Origin: a virus
DNA: 36,677 nt
Reading direction: 5' to 3' (one strand)
IMG/VR virus record: IMGVR_UViG_3300032240_002757
Coordinates: 1-36,677 of that record
Shown: positions 1-6,751 of the stretch, piece after piece
Layout of the letters: each line of letters starts with the position of its first letter
How positions within the stretch are numbered: position 1 is the first letter of the stretch
Made by a program: the position numbers and the translations under genes
The notes under the pieces: model-generated
What the model saw: the letters and a program-made list of their open reading frames with translations, nothing else
The model's database searches: none
What the model was told of the DNA's origin: nothing

Positions 1-390
1 CAGGTTCGCCACCTGAGCCAGTTCGGTGTCGCTCAATCCCTTCAGGTCGAGCGCCGCGACACTGATCGGGCCACCACCAGCGCCGGTCATCTCAGTGCGC
101 GCAAGTTTCGGCACGTGGTATTCGACGACACCCTGAAACAAGTTGAATGCCTTTTCCGGATTCGGCGGAACAACCCACAGCGGGTTGCCATTGTCGTCGT
201 GCATTTGGTTTCCCAGAGTGTCGTTGCGCGGGACGCCAGCCGCGACCGCATCGAGCCATTCCTGAAGCCGCTCTGCGTTGTTGTCGACGAACGACGCAAT
301 CGCTTGTCGCGCCTCTCGCGTCGCCTTGTTGGGGACGCCAGCCGGACGGCCAACGCTGTTCACGCCGGTGCGACCTTTGACTCCAGCCAA
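1..390 (-). CDS. Terminase small subunit-like protein (partial, runs off the window start)
   Basis: The reverse strand reads open for 130 codons from a TTG at 390 to base 1. The start is chosen because GGAGGTGAT, a nine-base match to the anti-Shine-Dalgarno sequence, lies six bases before the TTG. The protein begins MAGVKGRTGVNSVGRPAGVP and continues NKATREARQAIASFVDN. This GRPxGxxNKATxEAR opening is typical of phage small-terminase/DUF5681-type DNA-recognition proteins. A later segment, VVEYHVPKLARTE, fits the 'YHxPKxAR' feature of the same group. It would recognise phage DNA for packaging with the large subunit, which should lie beyond the window. The family call is by pattern memory; the reading frame itself is clear. 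Confidence 0.7.
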   Translation of the reverse strand, partial: MAGVKGRTGVNSVGRPAGVPNKATREARQAIASFVDNNAERLQEWLDAVAAGVPRNDTLGNQMHDDNGNPLWVVPPNPEKAFNLFQGVVEYHVPKLARTEMTGAGGGPISVAALDLKGLSDTELAQVANL

Positions 391-427
391 TTATCACCTC
401 CGAATATTTTTGGAATGCCGCGCTCTG

Positions 428-457
428 ATTATCGCCGCAGTCTCTGCTCAAAGGCAA
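428..457 (-). promoter_or_regulatory. Leftward promoter for the terminase gene
   Basis: On the reverse strand TTGCCT (457-452) is followed by an 18-bp spacer and GATAAT (433-428), a good sigma70-like pair. Transcription would start near 421 and give a leader of about 30 bases to the TTG start at 390. Two of the repeated CCCGAG-type sites (464-473 and 480-489) lie just upstream of the -35 element, where an activator or repressor could act. Confidence 0.55.
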
Positions 458-463
458 TCGCTG

Positions 464-643
464 ATCCCGAGATCCGAGTTGCCCGAGATTTCCTATTGTT
501 TTCTTATTTTAAATGTTTATTAATTTAATTATGTAATTTTCCAACAATTACTATCTTGGGTATTTTGGGATTATGCCTCAATCTCGGGATCGGAATCCCA
601 AGATGCCCGAGGCGACCCCAAACCGTAATTCCGTGCCCGAGAT
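464..643. repeat. Array of 10-bp operator/iteron-like sites
   Basis: Copies of a common 10-mer, written as the ATCTCGGG strand: 464-473 (reverse), 480-489 (reverse, ATCTCGGGCA), 553-562 (ATCTTGGGTA), 581-590 (ATCTCGGGAT), 595-604 (reverse, ATCTTGGGAT), 604-613 (reverse, GCCTCGGGCA) and 634-643 (reverse, ATCTCGGGCA). The copies at 581-590 and 595-604 form an inverted repeat with a 4-bp gap and one mismatch. Two more copies lie in the primase promoter at 3189-3198 and 3198-3207. Density and placement argue for a specific DNA-binding protein; origin iterons or operators are both possible. Confidence 0.6.
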
Positions 644-732
644 AATCCCGCGGCGATCATCCATCGCCCCTAACTACTAAGCGGTCAACCTTCGTTGAGA
701 GTCAGATGACGTCAACAAGTTGAAGAAAGTTG

Positions 733-761
733 TTGCCTTATGCTTCAAGGTCAGGCAGAGT
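733..761 (+). promoter_or_regulatory. Candidate early promoter P1 (weak)
   Basis: TTGCCT (733-738), a 17-bp spacer and CAGAGT (756-761) sit about 45 bases before the first early gene. The -10 is weak alone. However, the block resembles promoter P2 at 1322-1349: both have TTGTTGCC, then 22-23 bases, then TTCGTCTCA. An alternative pair, CAAGTT with 17 bp to TATGCT, overlaps it. Confidence 0.35.
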
Positions 762-805
762 TCGTCTCAGCAGCACCCAACTCAGAACTTAGACCGGAGA
801 ACGAA

Positions 806-1267
806 ATGCCCCGTGCAGCCCGCCAACCCAGAACCGCCGCTTTCACCGAACTGCAAGCCGCGGCCAACTCAGTGAACGAGAACAACGATTGCGCAGTGAA
901 GGCAGTCGCCATCGCCTGCAACGCCGACTACCACACCGTGCGCGACATGATGAACCAGATGGGCCGCAAGACTGGCAAGGGCACCGAATGGTCAATCATC
1001 AACGACACCATCGACCGTCTGGGCTACGACAAGGTGAAGGTCGACCCAGCGACCATCATCGCCAAGTACCCCAAGGGCCACCGCGACGTGCTGAAGAGCG
1101 TGACCACCCATCACCCCGACCGCTTCCGCGATGTGTGGGCCGATGGCAAGACCTACCTCATGTACACCCGCGGCCACGTGCTCACCATCGTCAACGGCGT
1201 CAACCACGACTGGACGCGCGGCACCGCCCGCCGCTGCTACTGGCTGTGGGAGATCGTGCAACGCTAA
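806..1267 (+). CDS. Papain-fold (C39-like) cysteine peptidase-like early protein
   Basis: First rightward gene, 153 aa. The ATG at 806 follows CTTAGACCGGAGA, so the longer frame from 740 is not used. The protein shows the layout of small phage papain-fold proteins: NENNDCAVKAVAIA puts a cysteine (C29) at the start of a helix, then MGRKTGKG, and later YTRGHVLTIVNG with a histidine (H124) and N130 or D135 as possible third residue. I recognise the pattern 'NDCxxxAxAIA ... GHxLxIxxG' from phage proteins of unknown substrate. As the first gene after the divergent region it could act early on a host or defence target. The fold is inferred; activity is not shown. Confidence 0.6.
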   Translation: MPRAARQPRTAAFTELQAAANSVNENNDCAVKAVAIACNADYHTVRDMMNQMGRKTGKGTEWSIINDTIDRLGYDKVKVDPATIIAKYPKGHRDVLKSVTTHHPDRFRDVWADGKTYLMYTRGHVLTIVNGVNHDWTRGTARRCYWLWEIVQR

Positions 1268-1321
1268 GTCGTTGTTCGGCAACGAGAATCGCAATAAGTC
1301 CAAAAATAATTGCGAAACTTG

Positions 1322-1349
1322 TTGCCGTCACCGCAGTTTCAGGCATACT
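1322..1349 (+). promoter_or_regulatory. Early promoter P2
   Basis: TTGCCG (1322-1327), 16-bp spacer, CATACT (1344-1349), about 50 bases before the ATG at 1401. The intervening leader carries the extended ribosome-binding box CAACTTAGAAAGGAA at 1379-1393. The block resembles P1 upstream of the previous gene. Confidence 0.5.
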
Positions 1350-1400
1350 TCGTCTCACGGTGATCAAACGACACCGTTCAACTTAGAAAGGAACCTAGCC

Positions 1401-1859
1401 ATGCTGAACATCACCACCGCCACCACCGCTGAACTCGTCGCCTTCTACAACGCCAACGCTGCCACCGCAGTGAAGAAGTTCGCCGACCGCAAGACCGCCG
1501 AGCGCCGCGTCGCCGCCCTGATCGAGACCATCAAGCCGGTGGTCGAGACCAAGGCCAAGACGAAGGCACCGAAGGTCTACAAGACCCACGAAGAGCGTAG
1601 CGAAGCCATCGCCAAGTCGTGGCTCGTGCCGGCCACCAAGGCCAAGCGTGTCACCCGCCACAGCGTCGACGTCGTCACGCCCGAGGGTCTGCGCATGGGC
1701 TTCCGCAGCACCAAGGAAGCGTTCGAGGTTCTGGAGCTGCCGCTCGGCCAGCACATCCGCTTCCGCGGCCAGCTGAAGCAAGCCGGCACCAAAGAGTTCG
1801 CAGCCAACGACGGCTCTTACAAGTTCATCCTGACCATGGGCTTCCTAACCGCAGCCTGA
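1401..1859 (+). CDS. Small basic phage protein, possible DNA-binding
   Basis: A 152-aa protein with an excellent ribosome site (TTAGAAAGGAA) eight bases before the ATG. The N-terminal part, with ATTAELVAFYNANA and VKKFADRKTAERRVAALIE, matches a motif ('ELVxxYNxxxxKxVKxFxDRxxxERRVxALL') I recall from many phage proteins annotated as hypothetical or nucleoid-associated. The middle is lysine-rich (KAKTKAPKVYKTHEER) and the C-terminal half has a compact mixed alpha/beta look. Strong signals suggest abundant early expression. A role in binding host or phage DNA is an inference, and it is one candidate reader of the repeated operator motif. Confidence 0.7.
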   Translation: MLNITTATTAELVAFYNANAATAVKKFADRKTAERRVAALIETIKPVVETKAKTKAPKVYKTHEERSEAIAKSWLVPATKAKRVTRHSVDVVTPEGLRMGFRSTKEAFEVLELPLGQHIRFRGQLKQAGTKEFAANDGSYKFILTMGFLTAA

Positions 1860-1867
1860 CAATCGCG

Positions 1868-1885
1868 GGGCGGCGCAAGCCGCCC
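1868..1885 (+). other. GC-rich hairpin with GCAA tetraloop
   Basis: GGGCGGC and GCCGCCC form a perfect 7-bp stem around a GNRA-type GCAA loop, directly after the stop codon at 1859. There is no U-run, so it is not a standard terminator. It could protect the upstream mRNA end or mark a processing point within the early transcript. Confidence 0.5.
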
Positions 1886-1913
1886 TCTGCACCAACCAAC
1901 AAGGAACCAAGCC

Positions 1914-2075
1914 ATGACCACCGGACAACTTATCTTCGCCCTGAGCACGCTGCCCCTCGACACCGAAGTCGTCGTGTGGGTCAACGGTGCGCCAGCCCAA
2001 AACACGTCCGAGCTGCCTCTGAGCCTGAGCCACGACGACATCACCCTGCAACTTCACGTCAACACCGAGGCCTGA
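1914..2075 (+). CDS. Small hypothetical protein
   Basis: An open frame of 53 aa beginning MTTGQLIFALSTLPLDTEVV, preceded by AAGGAACCAAGCC. It has a predicted helix followed by beta strands (TEVVVWVN, ITLQLHVN). The stop at 2073-2075 is two bases before the next ATG at 2078. The opening 'TxGxLIxALSxLPxDxxVxV' recurs in small phage proteins of unknown role. Confidence 0.65.
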   Translation: MTTGQLIFALSTLPLDTEVVVWVNGAPAQNTSELPLSLSHDDITLQLHVNTEA

Positions 2076-2077
2076 CC

Positions 2078-2266
2078 ATGCTAGACGACAAGTCATTCCG
2101 CGACGAGATCAACGTCGCCATCGCCCTGAACCAATTCCAGTACTTCATGTCCGAGGGTCGGATCCAAGCCGCCCGCGGCTTGCTGGAAGGTTTCCGCAAC
2201 GCTAACCCAACCCTCGCCAACCACCCACGCCTAGTTGAGGCGCTGGCATCTTCAGAAAGGAACTGA
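2078..2266 (+). CDS. Small hypothetical alpha-helical protein
   Basis: 62 aa, MLDDKSFRDEINVAIALNQF onward, largely helical by composition (FMSEGRIQAARGLLEGFRNA). It lies two bases after the previous stop and three bases before the next start at 2270. No ribosome site stronger than ACCGAGG is present, so translation is probably coupled to the gene before it. Function unknown. Confidence 0.6.
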   Translation: MLDDKSFRDEINVAIALNQFQYFMSEGRIQAARGLLEGFRNANPTLANHPRLVEALASSERN

Positions 2267-2269
2267 CCC

Positions 2270-2572
2270 ATGTGGTACTACGAACTCACCTTGCACCCCA
2301 GCGAAGCCGTCATCGGCCCCGTGGACCGCAACCAGCTGCTACAGCTGATCCGCAGCGGCACCAACCCGCGCATCTCGCCGGACGCCCCAGCCAGCTTCAC
2401 GGTGCACCCGATCAAGGTCGCCGTCAGCATCGAGCCGGTGCTCACCGAGGTTCACGCAGGATTCTTCGTGACCCTGCGGCACGCCGACGGCACGTTCATC
2501 CGCAACTCACAACTGTTCAGCGACCGCTGGACCGCCGAAGCCCACGCAGCAGATCTGGAGATGAAGTCATGA
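2270..2572 (+). CDS. Hypothetical phage protein
   Basis: 100 aa beginning MWYYELTLHPSEAVIGPVDR. The ATG follows CTTCAGAAAGGAACTGACCC, a copy of the extended ribosome-binding box that overlaps the end of the preceding gene. A beta-rich C-terminal half (AGFFVTLRHADGTFIRNSQL) suggests a small compact domain. The stop overlaps the next ATG as ATGA. No family recognised. Confidence 0.65.
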   Translation: MWYYELTLHPSEAVIGPVDRNQLLQLIRSGTNPRISPDAPASFTVHPIKVAVSIEPVLTEVHAGFFVTLRHADGTFIRNSQLFSDRWTAEAHAADLEMKS

Positions 2573-2883
2573 GGCTGTTTAACGAAAAGCAACTCGCCAC
2601 CACCGTCAGCATCGTCGAGGCCTATTCCGCTGTCATGGCCATGGCTGTGGTCGGCCTCTCTGAAGACAAGACCATGATGACCGTCAACGAAATAATCATC
2701 ACGGTTCTGGACGACGGCACCTACCACGTCGGCACCGCATCGCCGCTTCTGGACAAGCACCGCGGGGAAGCCTACGCCAAAAACTTGCTGGACGCAGTTG
2801 GGCTGGCCGTCGTGATGGCCATCGAAGCGGACGTATTCCGTTGCATCAACAGCCAAGGAGAAGAAAATGAGCAGCGTCACTAA
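2569..2883 (+). CDS. Hypothetical phage protein
   Basis: 104 aa, MRLFNEKQLATTVSIVEAYS onward, starting at the ATGA overlap with the gene before. An N-terminal helix with many small and hydrophobic residues (SAVMAMAVVGL) is followed by beta strands (NEIIITVLDDGTYHVGTA) and another helix. The last 17 bases overlap the next gene, whose ribosome site AAGGAGAAG lies inside it. Function unknown. Confidence 0.6.
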   Translation: MRLFNEKQLATTVSIVEAYSAVMAMAVVGLSEDKTMMTVNEIIITVLDDGTYHVGTASPLLDKHRGEAYAKNLLDAVGLAVVMAIEADVFRCINSQGEENEQRH

Positions 2884-3049
2884 GGAAGAGGTATTCGAGT
2901 TTCTGGACGACATGCGGGATTGGGGCGGCATCAACATGTACGGCGCTGGCCCTCACATCCAAGAAGCGTTCGGGGTTAGCCGCCAAGAGGCACGCAACTT
3001 GCTCTCGGAATGGATGAAGACGTTCTCCGAGCGCCATTCCACGACATAA
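2867..3049 (+). CDS. Small HTH-like phage protein
   Basis: 60 aa with a strong ribosome site (AAGGAGAAGAAA). Its features (EVFEFLDDMRDWGGINMYGA, then FGVSRQEARNLLSEWMKTF) match a small phage family with the pattern 'FLDxLRxxGxxNMxGAxPxLxxxFxxsrxEARxxLxxWM'. The second half looks like a helix-turn-helix, so a regulatory or DNA-binding role is possible. It precedes the regulated primase promoter. Confidence 0.7.
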   Translation: MSSVTKEEVFEFLDDMRDWGGINMYGAGPHIQEAFGVSRQEARNLLSEWMKTFSERHSTT

Positions 3050-3240
3050 TCAACTCTCGCAGCGCGACCTTCCGGTGTAGCGTCTGCGTTGGGGGTCTGC
3101 CCCAAGGTCGAAAGGGCAATGCAACAATGGACGCGTACTTTGTCTGCAACCTGAGTAGTGAACCGGCCCACCTGCGGCTTGCCTTTCTAGCCCGAGATGC
3201 CCGAGAATAGCTAACTCGTAAAACGTAGAAAGGAAAACAT
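3050..3240 (+). promoter_or_regulatory. Intergenic region with hairpin and primase promoter P3 carrying two operator-like sites
   Basis: No credible gene. A hairpin TTGGGG-GTCTG-CCCCAA lies at 3089-3105 without a U-run. Promoter P3 is TTGCCT (3179-3184), an 18-bp spacer and GAGAAT (3203-3208). Two copies of the repeated motif (3189-3198 and 3198-3207, abutting) fill the spacer and overlap the -10 box, so the cognate protein would directly affect this promoter. The ribosome box GTAGAAAGGAA is at 3225-3235. Confidence 0.6.
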
Positions 3241-4167
3241 ATGTCGGAAGCAGAAGCGTTCCTAGCTGAGCTCAGCGAAGGTCTGGACCGAGAAGAGCGG
3301 TTGATCCTCTGCGGCTTCCCTGGAGACCCTTACGAGGCTGGCCCCGTGGCTTGGAAGCCTAAGCCTTGGCGCTCTGGATCTGAATTCCCATTCCGCGAGC
3401 TGGACAACGCCTACGTGACCGTCTCTGGATTTAAGCGCGCCGCCGACAACACCTACCGCCGCCGCACCGAGACGTTCGGTTGTGGGCTGGCCTTGATGGT
3501 GGACGACGTTGGCACCAAGGTGGACCGCGCGTTCGTGGAAGAGATGCAGCCCACGTGGAAGATCGAGACCTCACCTGGGAACGAGCAGTGGTGGTACTTT
3601 CTGGATCAGCCCGAGCGCGACATGATCCGCTTCGACGGTCTGATCCGCGCATTCATCAGTGGCAAGTTGCTGGGCGCAGATCCTGGGATGTCGGGCGTGA
3701 CCCGCGTTGGCCGCTTGCCTGGACACCTGAACGGCAAGAAGGCCTACGAGGGCTGGATCACCCGCACCCTGGAGCGCAACGGCACCCGCTGGTCGCCACA
3801 AGACCTTCTGGACGGTTTCAACTTGCAGATCGTTGGCCGTCGCGTTTCGCGCACCAAGTTGCCGACCGAAGAGGCCATCGAACGCAACCGCATGTTCGGC
3901 AACACCTACAAATGGCTGGACCAACGCAACATGCTCAAGAAGCACGAGCCGGATCCGTCTGGATGGACAGAGATGACCTGTCCGTGGTACGAGAGCCACA
4001 CCAACGGCGTGGACAACGGCGCAGCCATCCGCGAACCCGCGGCTGAGAACGATTACTATGGCGCGTTCCGTTGCCACCATGGCCATTGTGTCTCCAAGGG
4101 TTGGTCTGATCTGACCGAATGGGTCAATGAGCAGTCGATAGAAGAACTGGAACGAGCCGCAGTATGA
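3241..4167 (+). CDS. RepB/AEP-like DNA primase with C-terminal zinc-binding segment
   Basis: 308 aa. It contains LALMVDDVGTKVD (about 84-95), resembling the catalytic hhhDxD strand of archaeo-eukaryotic-type primases, then ETSPGNEQWWYFLD (109-122) and RVGRLPGHLNGK (155-166), the order seen in RepB-like phage and plasmid primases. The C-terminus has C247, H253, C278 and C283 (TCPWYESH and FRCHHGHC), a likely zinc-binding site. It should make primers with the helicase encoded next, whose ATG overlaps its stop (ATGA). Its promoter carries two operator-like sites, which suggests control linked to the divergent region. The family assignment is from motifs only. Confidence 0.75.
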   Translation: MSEAEAFLAELSEGLDREERLILCGFPGDPYEAGPVAWKPKPWRSGSEFPFRELDNAYVTVSGFKRAADNTYRRRTETFGCGLALMVDDVGTKVDRAFVEEMQPTWKIETSPGNEQWWYFLDQPERDMIRFDGLIRAFISGKLLGADPGMSGVTRVGRLPGHLNGKKAYEGWITRTLERNGTRWSPQDLLDGFNLQIVGRRVSRTKLPTEEAIERNRMFGNTYKWLDQRNMLKKHEPDPSGWTEMTCPWYESHTNGVDNGAAIREPAAENDYYGAFRCHHGHCVSKGWSDLTEWVNEQSIEELERAAV

Positions 4168-5666
4168 CGACCATCGATGAACGCACGGCGGCGCGTGAAG
4201 CCGCCCTCCAAGATATTGTAGCCAACAGCCGCCGCCTTGCCAGACCAGAAGACTATGTTTTCGACAAGGCTCAAGAAGCGTTCTGGGATCTGCGCGACGG
4301 CACGCAACATTCTGAAAAGGCTGTGGACGCCTCCATCCCTCTGGAGCTGTGGCGGGTTGAGGTTGAAGAAGGTGACGACGAAGCGCCAGCCGAAGGGCGA
4401 CGGGGTCGTGGTCGTCCGCGCCGCCGCCGCGAGCGGTTGATCCCACCGAGCCGTGACATCATGCGGGTTGAGAACGATCAGTTCGTGGAAGGCTCCACGT
4501 GGTGGCCTGGAGAGACGCAAATCATCCGTGACATCTTCATCGACTCCAACGGTTGGCGTGCAGCATCTGGACGACGGATCTACAACAAGTACCTGCCGCC
4601 GCCCAGCGTGAAGCCTGGAGACTACAACGCCACACCGTGGATTGACCACGTGGTGAAGTTGTGGCCTGAGCCGGTTGAGCACAACTTCTTCTTCGACTTC
4701 TGCGCGCACATGCTGCAGCACCCAGAAGAGAAATGCAACGCCGCCATCGTCCTGAGCGGCACGCAAGGCATCGGTAAGGATGCAGCGCTCATGCCGGTGA
4801 AGTCAGCTATCGGCAACTGGAATACCAAGAACATCGACCCAGACGAGCTGTTCAGCCCTTATAAGCCATGGCTGGAAACTCTGATGCTGGTCGTCGACGA
4901 AGTGCGACCCACCAAGGACGAGTTCCACGCCAGCTCTGCATACAACATCCTGAAGCCGATGATTGTGGCGCCACCCGACACGCTGCCGCTCAATGACAAA
5001 TATGCCAAGTTGCGTCACATCATCAACCGGCTACGCGTGTTCATCACGACCAACGACTGGATGTCCATGTACATCCCGCCGGAAGACCGCCGCATGTTCA
5101 TCATGCATTCCCACCTGCCGCAAAAATGGCACGAGCAGGAAAAGGATCCTGAGTACTTCACGCGCCTGTTCGACTGGTTCTATTCCGGCGGCTGCGAAGC
5201 CGTCGCTGCGTGGTTGGCGACGCGTGATCTGAGTCATTTCAACCCGAAGGCTCAGGTGACGCGTACGTCTGGATGGGGAGCGGTTGCTGCCAGCTGGGGC
5301 GAACCAGAAGACGCGATTTGCTGGGCGCTGGACCATCTGGGCAATCCTGACGTGTTGCTCGGGCAAGAACTGGCACTGCCGCAGTTCGACCACCGCGAGG
5401 AAGTCTCCAACATGCTGAAGTCGCCGCGCAAGATTGCGCACCGCATGAACCGCGCTGGTTACGTCAATGTTCCTGCGCCCAATGGAGACCGCTGGGTGTT
5501 CCGTCACGAGGGCAAGGTCTCTCGTGCACGTTACGCGTTCGTCAAGGCCGCTCTCACCCGCGACATCAACGCCGCGGTGGCGATGGTCAAGGCCCACGGT
5601 GAGAAGTTGCTGGCCAACACGCAGGATGGTCAGGTGATCCCCCTGCAGCAGAAAAAGTCTAAATAA
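4164..5666 (+). CDS. D5/VirE-like replicative helicase with AT-hook-like motif
   Basis: 500 aa. The ATPase core has Walker A GTQGIGKD (199-206), Walker B MLVVDEV (241-247), sensor-like VFITTND (292-298) and a PEDRRMF segment (306-312) that may supply the arginine finger. This order fits the VirE/DUF5906 group of phage and plasmid helicases often paired with RepB-like primases. Walker A ends GKD instead of GKS or GKT. A basic stretch RGRGRPRRRR (80-89) matches the AT-hook core RGRP and sits in a low-complexity acidic/basic linker. The protein probably unwinds phage DNA at the fork, and the AT-hook could help it find AT-rich DNA. Confidence 0.8.
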   Translation: MTTIDERTAAREAALQDIVANSRRLARPEDYVFDKAQEAFWDLRDGTQHSEKAVDASIPLELWRVEVEEGDDEAPAEGRRGRGRPRRRRERLIPPSRDIMRVENDQFVEGSTWWPGETQIIRDIFIDSNGWRAASGRRIYNKYLPPPSVKPGDYNATPWIDHVVKLWPEPVEHNFFFDFCAHMLQHPEEKCNAAIVLSGTQGIGKDAALMPVKSAIGNWNTKNIDPDELFSPYKPWLETLMLVVDEVRPTKDEFHASSAYNILKPMIVAPPDTLPLNDKYAKLRHIINRLRVFITTNDWMSMYIPPEDRRMFIMHSHLPQKWHEQEKDPEYFTRLFDWFYSGGCEAVAAWLATRDLSHFNPKAQVTRTSGWGAVAASWGEPEDAICWALDHLGNPDVLLGQELALPQFDHREEVSNMLKSPRKIAHRMNRAGYVNVPAPNGDRWVFRHEGKVSRARYAFVKAALTRDINAAVAMVKAHGEKLLANTQDGQVIPLQQKKSK

Positions 5667-5751: not shown

Positions 5752-5997
5752 ATGAAAGTGATGCAAGACCGCAGCCGCCGCACGCTAATCATCGTGCGCC
5801 AAGGCACGAAGTTTATCTCCGGCGTGGAACTCAGCGACGGCGAATTGACCGTCAGCAAGTTCACCGACGAAGATCTGCAAGAGCGCGGCTTCAAGGATAT
5901 CGATTACCCGCTGGACCGCGCCGTTGACCATTTCCTGCGCCACAATGGCGGCTTGTCTGACGCCGCACGCCGCGCATTGCTCGAACTCCGCAACTGA
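5752..5997 (+). CDS. Small hypothetical protein
   Basis: 81 aa, MKVMQDRSRRTLIIVRQGTK onward. The ATG at 5752 directly follows TTAGAAAGGAACCGAG, which decides the start; a longer overlapping frame from 5667 is out of phase and rejected. An N-terminal beta-rich part (TLIIVRQGTKFISGVEL) precedes a helical C-terminus (SDAARRALLELRN). It is the first gene behind promoter P4. Function unknown. Confidence 0.65.
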   Translation: MKVMQDRSRRTLIIVRQGTKFISGVELSDGELTVSKFTDEDLQERGFKDIDYPLDRAVDHFLRHNGGLSDAARRALLELRN

Positions 5998-6007
5998 GGA
6001 TAAAACC

Positions 6008-6751
6008 ATGCACAGCATTCCCGTCGCCGCTCTGGCAACCGCACCCGCTCCGACCGTCTCTGACCGTTATCAATTCATCAGCTCGCAGGATATCATTAAC
6101 AAGTTCTCCGAGCACGGCTGGCAGCTCAACTCTGCAAGCGTTGCAGCACCGCGCAAGCGCGATCCGCTCTACGCCAAGCACATGCTGGATTTCCGTCACC
6201 CCGACCACGAAGAGATCAACGGTGCAGTCCCACGCATCATCGTCGTCAACAGCCACGACGGAACCTGCAGCGCTCGCGTTATGGCAGGCGTGTTCCGTTT
6301 CGTCTGCAGCAACGGTCTGATCATCGGCGACGTGACCGCCAAGGAGACCGTTCGTCACTCCGGCGACGCCGCAGCCGACCTGATTCACCGCATGCAGACG
6401 TTTGCGCGCAATACCGAACGAGTGTATGATTCCATCTCGTCGTGGTCTAAGATCCAGCTGACGGTGCAACAGCGCAATCAGTTCGCACGGTTCGCCGCGC
6501 AGCTGCGCTGGGGCGACGCCAACCGTTTCCAACCGGAAGATCTGCTCATGGTTCGCCGCGACGCAGACGACAAGGGCGATCTCTGGACCACCTTCAACCG
6601 TCTGCAGGAAAATACCGTGCGCGGCGGCATCGAAGGGTTCTCGCGCTCTGGCCGCGCCGCGACCAGCCGCCCGCTCTCTGACATCAGCCGCTCGGTCGAC
6701 TACAACGCTCAGTTGTGGGAGCTGGCCGAAGAGATCGCTGAGACTTGGTAA
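6008..6751 (+). CDS. DUF932-family protein
   Basis: 247 aa from the ATG at 6008, ten bases after the preceding stop, with GAGGATAAAACC as ribosome site; an in-frame ATG at 5924 lies inside the previous gene and is less likely. The order of motifs fits DUF932: RYQFISSQDIINKFSEHGW near the N-terminus, then IIVVNSHDGTCSARVMAGVF, FRFVCSNGLIIGD and a helical C-terminal half with LLMVRRDADD. DUF932 proteins are widespread in phages and plasmids; their biochemical role is unknown, and some sit beside replication or recombination genes, as here. Confidence 0.85.
   Translation: MHSIPVAALATAPAPTVSDRYQFISSQDIINKFSEHGWQLNSASVAAPRKRDPLYAKHMLDFRHPDHEEINGAVPRIIVVNSHDGTCSARVMAGVFRFVCSNGLIIGDVTAKETVRHSGDAAADLIHRMQTFARNTERVYDSISSWSKIQLTVQQRNQFARFAAQLRWGDANRFQPEDLLMVRRDADDKGDLWTTFNRLQENTVRGGIEGFSRSGRAATSRPLSDISRSVDYNAQLWELAEEIAETW

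What the first reader, a model, noticed from the sequence alone, without database searches (positions are those of the whole stretch)
464..3207. A nine-copy 10-bp motif: phage origin iterons or operators linking the divergent region to the primase promoter
Sites close to ATCTCGGGCA/ATCTYGGGAT occur seven times between 464 and 643, on both sides of an AT-rich stretch (about 490-575), and twice more, abutting, inside the promoter of the primase gene (3189-3207). Repeats next to an AT-rich element, plus extra copies in the promoter of the initiator gene, is the layout of autoregulated iteron origins in plasmids. No such element is described to my knowledge for phages with a RepB-like primase, VirE-like helicase and DnaE polymerase.
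Basis: partly seen in the sequence, partly recalled or inferred. Interest (0 to 1): 0.76.

Follow-up and report, generated by a model that had tools for sequence, protein, structure and literature searches.

The report
Phage replication origin with self-controlling repeats
A family of uncultured phages carries a 9-base repeat mainly in two places: in mirrored arrays around the most AT-rich DNA of the phage, which looks like its replication origin, and in the promoter of its replication genes, so the protein that starts replication probably also limits its own production.

Summary
The unit is a 9-bp iteron, (g/t)CCC(G/A)AGAT. In the window it forms inverted arrays on both sides of a 63-bp stretch (490-552) that is the most AT-rich DNA of the record, plus one tandem pair across the putative -10 of the primase promoter. 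Relatives show the same two-place layout: 55 of 103 motif hits in six contigs fall in under 1% of the sequence. In most relatives the array lies directly 3' of the DUF5906/SF3 helicase gene. It stays there when the neighbouring terminase is replaced, and it is absent beside more distant homologues of the window's terminase small subunit. Across lineages the iteron sequence drifts, and the promoter copies drift with it. This is best read as a replication origin of the kind known from PICI/SaPI satellites: helicase gene, then two iteron sets around an AT-rich melting site. The extra copies suggest an autorepressor operator. The likeliest ligand is the helicase's C-terminal, winged-helix-like domain. 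Binding, melting, origin activity and repression are all inferred. Packaging-site and divergent-operator readings fit worse.

The parts
464..489 (-). Right arm of the origin (read on the - strand the arm lies 3' of the AT core): iterons 464-473 and 480-489 with a degenerate copy (about 472-480) between them
   Evidence: alignable in relatives
490..552 (.). AT-rich core, 84% AT, most AT-rich stretch of the record; proposed melting element
   Evidence: the core is the AT-richest 60 bp of the locus in 23 of 23 loci
493..500 (+). Edge box CTATTGTT next to the inner iteron
   Evidence: mirrored boxes in most lineages
543..551 (-). Edge box GTAATTGTT, inverted relative to the box at 493-500
   Evidence: in L130 both boxes read CTATTTGTT
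553..590 (+). Left arm of the origin: iterons 553-562, 562-571 and 581-590, opposite in orientation to those at 464-489
   Evidence: conserved order in L003, L005, L007 and L008
595..643 (-). Outer iterons 595-604, 604-613 (weak) and 634-643
3179..3208 (+). Putative primase promoter: TTGCCT (3179-3184), 18-bp spacer, GAGAAT (3203-3208)
   Evidence: read from sequence; below the consensus scanner's threshold; the same hexamer class and spacing is found for the terminase promoter
3189..3207 (-). Tandem iteron pair in the spacer and -10 of the primase promoter; proposed autorepressor operator
3241..4167 (+). Primase with RepB_primase domain (PF16793), archaeo-eukaryotic type
4164..5666 (+). DUF5906 (D5/VirE-like, SF3) helicase; proposed initiator
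5295..5550 (+). Helicase C-terminal winged-helix-like domain (about residues 378-462); proposed iteron-binding domain, with SPRKIAHRM at residues 420-428
   Evidence: fold match weak
1..390 (-). Terminase small-subunit homologue running off the left end; neighbour of the origin, not part of the mechanism

Best explanation
The array at 464-643 is the phage's replication origin and the pair at 3189-3207 is an autoregulatory operator, both bound by the same protein. Steps: (1) the initiator, most likely the C-terminal domain of the SF3 helicase 4164-5666, binds 9-bp iterons in two inverted sets; (2) two rings assemble head to head on either side of the AT-rich core 490-552 and melt it; (3) the primase 3241-4167 primes on the opened strands and the phage DnaE-type polymerase extends; (4) when initiator accumulates it occupies the tandem pair that covers the spacer and -10 of the primase-helicase promoter and blocks RNA polymerase, capping its own supply. 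Shown here: the two-place distribution, the inverted arms and AT core, conservation in relatives, linkage to the helicase rather than the terminase, concerted drift of promoter and origin copies, SF3 family of the helicase. Inferred: binding, ring assembly, melting, origin activity, repression, identity of the binder.
For: Motif confined: 55 of 103 hits in about 2.3 kb of 274 kb over six contigs (G002 and G003 are close relatives). Tandem pair 9 bp apart conserved about 45 bp before the primase ATG while flanks diverge. Array directly 3' of the helicase gene in most relatives. Three lineages fetched later (L170/L171, L173, L181; 61-64% helicase identity) show inverted iterons directly 3' of the helicase gene, as predicted beforehand. 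AT core is the AT-richest 60 bp of the locus in 23 of 23 loci. Terminase swap: L027 carries an Sf6-type TerS and a different TerL yet keeps the array, while TerS homologues at or below 60% identity have none. Promoter and origin copies drift together: 2.1 bits own-genome excess, p below 1e-4 over 13 lineages, p = 0.0014 without the two most divergent; L128/L129 use ACCGAG, and L020 CCTGAG, in both places. Lineages with an altered helix in the helicase C-terminus (L131 APRRFVLRM, L028 RGFVFRM, versus SPRKI.HRM) have altered repeats. Precedent: SaPI Rep and SCCmec Cch2 bind origin iterons directly downstream of their genes through their C-terminal domains (PMC7581432); PICI origins always have two iteron sets flanking an AT-rich region 3' of rep (PMC6092414).
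Against: No experiment. The binder is not fixed by gene content: DnaE, a second helicase and about ten other genes are also shared by the five long relatives. The winged-helix assignment is weak (Foldseek best E 0.13, best Z 4.9). The promoter pair is missing in L014, L016, L017, L021, L022 and L028 and doubtful in L131 and L132, so autoregulation is not universal. No GC-skew switch. The covariation test does not correct for phylogeny. In the window itself the helicase gene and the array are 5 kb apart. The primase promoter is not recognised by the consensus scan.
Confidence: 0.74

Rival explanations
1. Origin and operator as above, but the iterons are bound by another phage protein (the primase, or a small DNA-binding protein of the early operon), with the helicase recruited to it.
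For: Many early genes are shared by all long relatives; the winged-helix match of the helicase C-terminus is weak; in plasmid RSF1010 origin recognition is by a separate protein, RepC, apart from helicase and primase (discussed in PMC4234260).
Against: The array is usually directly 3' of the helicase gene, where SaPI Rep and Cch2 origins lie; changes in the predicted recognition helix accompany changes in the repeats in L131 and L028.
Confidence: 0.16
2. Packaging site: the array is a cosB or pac site bound by the terminase small subunit, whose gene lies next to it, with an AT-rich bend between binding sites as in lambda cosB.
For: The array is directly upstream of terS in the window and in L003, L005, L007, L008 and L014.
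Against: Array kept with an unrelated Sf6-type TerS and other TerL in L027, and next to HNH genes in L128, L129 and L131. No cluster beside TerS homologues at or below 60% identity. Does not explain the copies in the primase promoter.
Confidence: 0.05
3. Pure transcriptional operators of an early/late regulator, without origin function.
For: The promoter pair covers the putative -10; in the window the array lies between divergent genes, and a terminase promoter-like site is at 457-428.
Against: In most relatives the array is not between divergent genes; an operator does not call for an 84% AT core with mirrored edge boxes and two inverted arms kept in about 20 lineages; the terminase promoter lies outside the arms.
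Confidence: 0.05

Closest known systems
PICI/SaPI replication origins with Rep (or Pri-Rep) initiator helicase (PMC6092414; PMC7581432)
   Same: Primase gene, then initiator helicase gene, then origin directly 3' of it; two iteron sets flanking an AT-rich region; SF3-type helicase with a separate C-terminal domain; SaPI5 primase-helicase 7ola is among the fold matches.
   Different: Here in large phages with their own structural genes and DnaE-type polymerase, not satellites; separate RepB-type primase; extra iteron pair in the primase promoter; mirrored TATTGTT edge boxes; in the window's clade origin and helicase gene are separated. PMC6092414 states the organisation was known from no other bacterial replicon.
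SCCmec Cch2 / CCPol-MP system (PMC7581432)
   Same: Helicase C-terminal domain binds short direct repeats downstream of its operon.
   Different: AAGTG pentamers, A-family polymerase-type primase, no reported promoter copies in the passages read.
Satellite phage P4 alpha protein with ori1/crr
   Same: SF3-type helicase with C-terminal winged-helix origin-binding domain and repeats at the origin (as cited in PMC4234260 and PMC10516667); a second distant repeat cluster.
   Different: P4's primase is bacterial (Toprim) type and fused to the helicase (PMC4234260); here it is a separate RepB/AEP-type protein. The second cluster in P4 (crr) is a replication element (from memory), here it lies in a promoter.
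Iteron plasmids with autoregulated Rep (for example F/RepE)
   Same: Repeats at the origin plus related sites in the promoter of a replication gene.
   Different: Different initiator class; plasmid operators are usually inverted half-iterons (from memory), here a direct tandem pair.
pRN1 ORF904 origin (PMC4234260)
   Same: AEP primase plus SF3 helicase with C-terminal winged helix; origin directly 3' of the gene.
   Different: pRN1 uses a 100-nt stem-loop and no iterons.

Membership tests
[quoted passage not shown]
PICI/SaPI-type initiator-helicase origin | Origin directly 3' of the initiator helicase gene | tested here: inconclusive
   Met in most relatives; not met in the window and L003, where the cassette lies elsewhere
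PICI/SaPI-type initiator-helicase origin | SF3 helicase initiator | tested here: met
   Foldseek: NrS-1 6k9c E 6e-10, poxvirus D5/E5, SaPI5 7ola E 2.5e-5; model pLDDT 70.5
PICI/SaPI-type initiator-helicase origin | C-terminal domain of the helicase binds the iterons | not testable with these tools
   Indirect only: helix changes accompany motif changes in L131 and L028
PICI/SaPI (as elements) | Satellite of a helper phage with integrase, no full structural set | not tested
   Integrase and structural genes were not annotated systematically; relatives carry terminase large-subunit genes
P4 alpha-type replicon | Toprim primase fused to helicase | tested here: not met
   Separate RepB_primase-domain protein
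P4 alpha-type replicon | Winged-helix origin-binding domain at the C-terminus | tested here: inconclusive
   Winged-helix-like topology in the model; matches weak, P4 domain not listed
cosB/pac packaging site | Linked to and co-inherited with the terminase small subunit | tested here: not met
   Array kept with other TerS types, absent beside more distant TerS homologues
Autoregulated iteron replicon | Related sites in the promoter of the replication gene | tested here: met
   absent in some lineages (L014, L016, L017)
Autoregulated iteron replicon | Initiator represses its own promoter | not testable with these tools
   needs a reporter assay

The most novel reading that the evidence does not exclude
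A widespread clade of phages with RepB-type primase and DnaE polymerase starts replication from a symmetric origin in which a self-loading SF3 helicase assembles as a head-to-head pair on inverted 9-bp iterons; the mirrored CTATTGTT/CTAATTGTT boxes at the edges of the AT core are the primase start sites on the two strands; and the same helicase switches off the primase-helicase operon by binding a tandem iteron pair over its -10. This would be a phage with a plasmid-like, self-limiting replicon.
Probability: 0.28. Interest if true: 0.8.

Novelty: new variant of a known kind. Interest (0 to 1): 0.62.

Why it matters
Origins are unknown for most phages, above all uncultured ones. Here an origin, its likely initiator and its control site can be named from sequence and followed through about 20 lineages as the repeat changes, so the recognition code between a helicase domain and its iterons can be tested directly. 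It extends an origin organisation described as exclusive to satellite islands (PICIs) to apparently complete phages, which bears on where PICI replicons came from. It also suggests feedback control of initiation in a phage, where runaway replication is the usual expectation.

Tried and rejected
Packaging-site reading: rejected because the array follows the primase-helicase module, not the terminase. Divergent-promoter operator as the main role: rejected, since in most relatives the array is not between divergent genes. GC skew: no sign change at the element in the window or in seven other loci. Consensus promoter scan: no hit at the primase promoter; the promoter call rests on similarity to the terminase promoter hexamers and on conservation of GA(G/C)AAT. 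Foldseek and VIA-align with the C-terminal domain: only generic winged-helix proteins at weak scores; the P4 origin-binding domain was not listed, which says nothing either way. Named phages: nothing with near DNA similarity; best helicase match 35% over 54%, and its annotated surroundings did not point to a similar layout, not pursued. Bacterial genomes: only two remote matches, so no host or prophage clue. Stem-loop: the region can fold as single-stranded DNA slightly better than shuffles (z -2.0); this mostly reflects the inverted iterons and boxes and I do not read it as a pRN1-type stem-loop. L185 (37% helicase identity) shows no iterons 3' of the helicase, so the element may not extend that far.
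Full report
OBSERVATION. The nine sites are present at the coordinates given. A strict form of the motif (TCTYGGGH, both strands) has 14 hits in the window: 6 within 464-643, 2 at 3189-3207 and 6 scattered singles. Dinucleotide shuffles average 6.3 hits in all and never put more than 3 in 180 bp. In the window tandem pairs 9 bp apart occur only at 597 and 3191. The stretch 490-552 between the arms is 84% AT; 63-bp windows starting there are the most AT-rich of the entire record.

RELATIVES. The window is a complete IMG/VR virus record classed as linear, probably a fragment. Searches with the primase, the terminase small subunit and the helicase gave over 100 further viral loci. Upstream of the primase, the pair gCCCGAGATgCCCGAgAATa sits about 45 bp before the start codon in most relatives, although the surrounding DNA has diverged. 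The array is also conserved: the window's - strand from about 650 to 450 reads like the region between the helicase and terminase genes of L005, L007 and L012, with the same order of copies, the same edge sequences and an AT-rich centre. Over the window and five long relatives, 55 of 103 motif hits fall in the two elements, about 2.3 kb of 274 kb (two of the contigs are close relatives).

WHAT IT TRAVELS WITH. In the window the array is next to the terminase small-subunit gene, so a packaging site had to be considered. Three facts speak against it. L027 has an Sf6-type small subunit (PF20901) and a different large subunit, yet keeps a strong array directly after the helicase gene. L128, L129 and L131 have the array next to the helicase and then an HNH-like gene instead of the terminase. 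Homologues of the window's terminase small subunit at or below 60% identity have no cluster. In most relatives the array starts within or directly after the 3' end of the DUF5906 helicase gene. Three further lineages found later with the helicase profile (L170/L171, L173, L181) show inverted iterons there, as predicted; L181 has three perfect 9-bp copies on each side. In the window's own clade the primase-helicase cassette lies inside the rightward early cluster, 2.6 kb from the array; in G002, G003, G004, G006 and G007 the primase-helicase-array unit is divergent from the remaining early genes.

ANATOMY. In 23 of 23 loci the centre between the arms is the AT-richest 60 bp of the fetched DNA. 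The iterons of the two inner arms point in opposite directions. At each edge of the AT core, directly after the inner iteron, sits a box: (C/G)TAATTGTT on one side and, inverted, CTATT(G/C)TT on the other. The boxes lie 40-44 or 54-56 bp apart in most lineages (34-49 in a few) and survive where the iterons have changed; in L130 both read CTATTTGTT. The element is therefore roughly mirror-symmetric, which fits a pair of ring helicases loading head to head (inference; [quoted passage not shown]

DRIFT. The iteron is not fixed: L128 and L129 use ACC(G/A)AG, L020 CCTGAG, L023 and L009 often TACCCGAG, L136 AACCCGAGAA, L131 CCCGCAA together with CCCGAG, and L028 has CGCCCGAC repeats. The promoter copies follow: with one genome per lineage, promoter copies fit their own origin's profile 2.1 bits better than expected from permuted pairings (p below 1e-4, 13 lineages; p = 0.0014 without L128 and L020). 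This does not correct for shared descent. It is what one expects if one protein binds both places. Promoter copies also carry a constraint of their own: the second copy ends GA(G/C)AAT where origin copies mostly end GAGAT, as if it doubled as a -10 element.

THE BINDER. The helicase is of the SF3/D5 type: its model matches the NrS-1 phage helicase (E 6e-10), poxvirus D5/E5 and the SaPI5 primase-helicase. Its last 120 residues are predicted with good confidence as a helix-helix-helix-wing arrangement typical of winged helices, but database matches are weak. The conserved SPRKI.HRM helix is replaced in L131 and L028, two lineages with changed repeats. Together with gene position and the precedents of SaPI Rep and SCCmec Cch2 this makes the helicase C-terminus the favourite, not a proven, binder; roughly a dozen other genes are shared by all five long relatives.

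PROMOTER. The pair at 3189-3207 lies in the 18-bp spacer and -10 of a TTGCCT-N18-GAGAAT promoter (3179-3208), the same class as the terminase promoter TTGCCT-N18-GATAAT at 457-428 on the other strand; the generic consensus scan misses the primase one. Occupancy there should block RNA polymerase. The pair is missing in L014, L016, L017, L021, L022 and L028, so this control is common but not essential.

COMPARISON. [quoted passage not shown] The same works-like relation holds for P4 alpha, but the primase type and the split genes differ, so it is not a P4-type replicon; pRN1 has a stem-loop instead of iterons. I file it as a new variant of the PICI/SaPI-type initiator-helicase origin, with an added autoregulatory operator and a different primase, in apparently self-sufficient phages.

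LIMITS. Everything functional is inferred from sequence. Most relatives are fragments; several contigs are near-duplicates, so lineage counts are smaller than locus counts. Primase start codons in L131 and L132 were set by alignment and may be off.

Noticed in passing
window 428-457(-), 733-762(+), 1322-1350(+), 3179-3208(+): A shared promoter-like pattern TTGCC(T/G)-N17/18-(G/A)-rich -10 upstream of the terminase gene, gene 806, gene 1401 and the primase; likely the phage's or host's early promoter class. Genes 806 and 1401 also share similar leader sequences.
   Followed up: partly
window 1-5666; G002, G003, G004, G006, G007: The primase-helicase cassette has moved: codirectional inside the early cluster in the window's clade, a separate unit divergent from the early cluster in relatives.
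   Followed up: partly
L005 9922-12160; L027 10362-12286; L128, L129, L131, L181 after the array: The genes next to the origin are exchanged between relatives (two terminase types, HNH-like genes), so the origin marks a recombination boundary between replication and packaging modules.
   Followed up: partly
window 1401-1500: DNA of gene 1401 is about 76% identical over roughly 90 bp to hypothetical genes of many Pseudomonas PB1-like phages, although the genomes are otherwise unrelated at DNA level; the primase family is also shared with them (about 30% identity).
   Followed up: no
window 5924-6751: DUF932 gene (PF06067) directly downstream of the replication genes, kept in four of five long relatives.
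   Followed up: no
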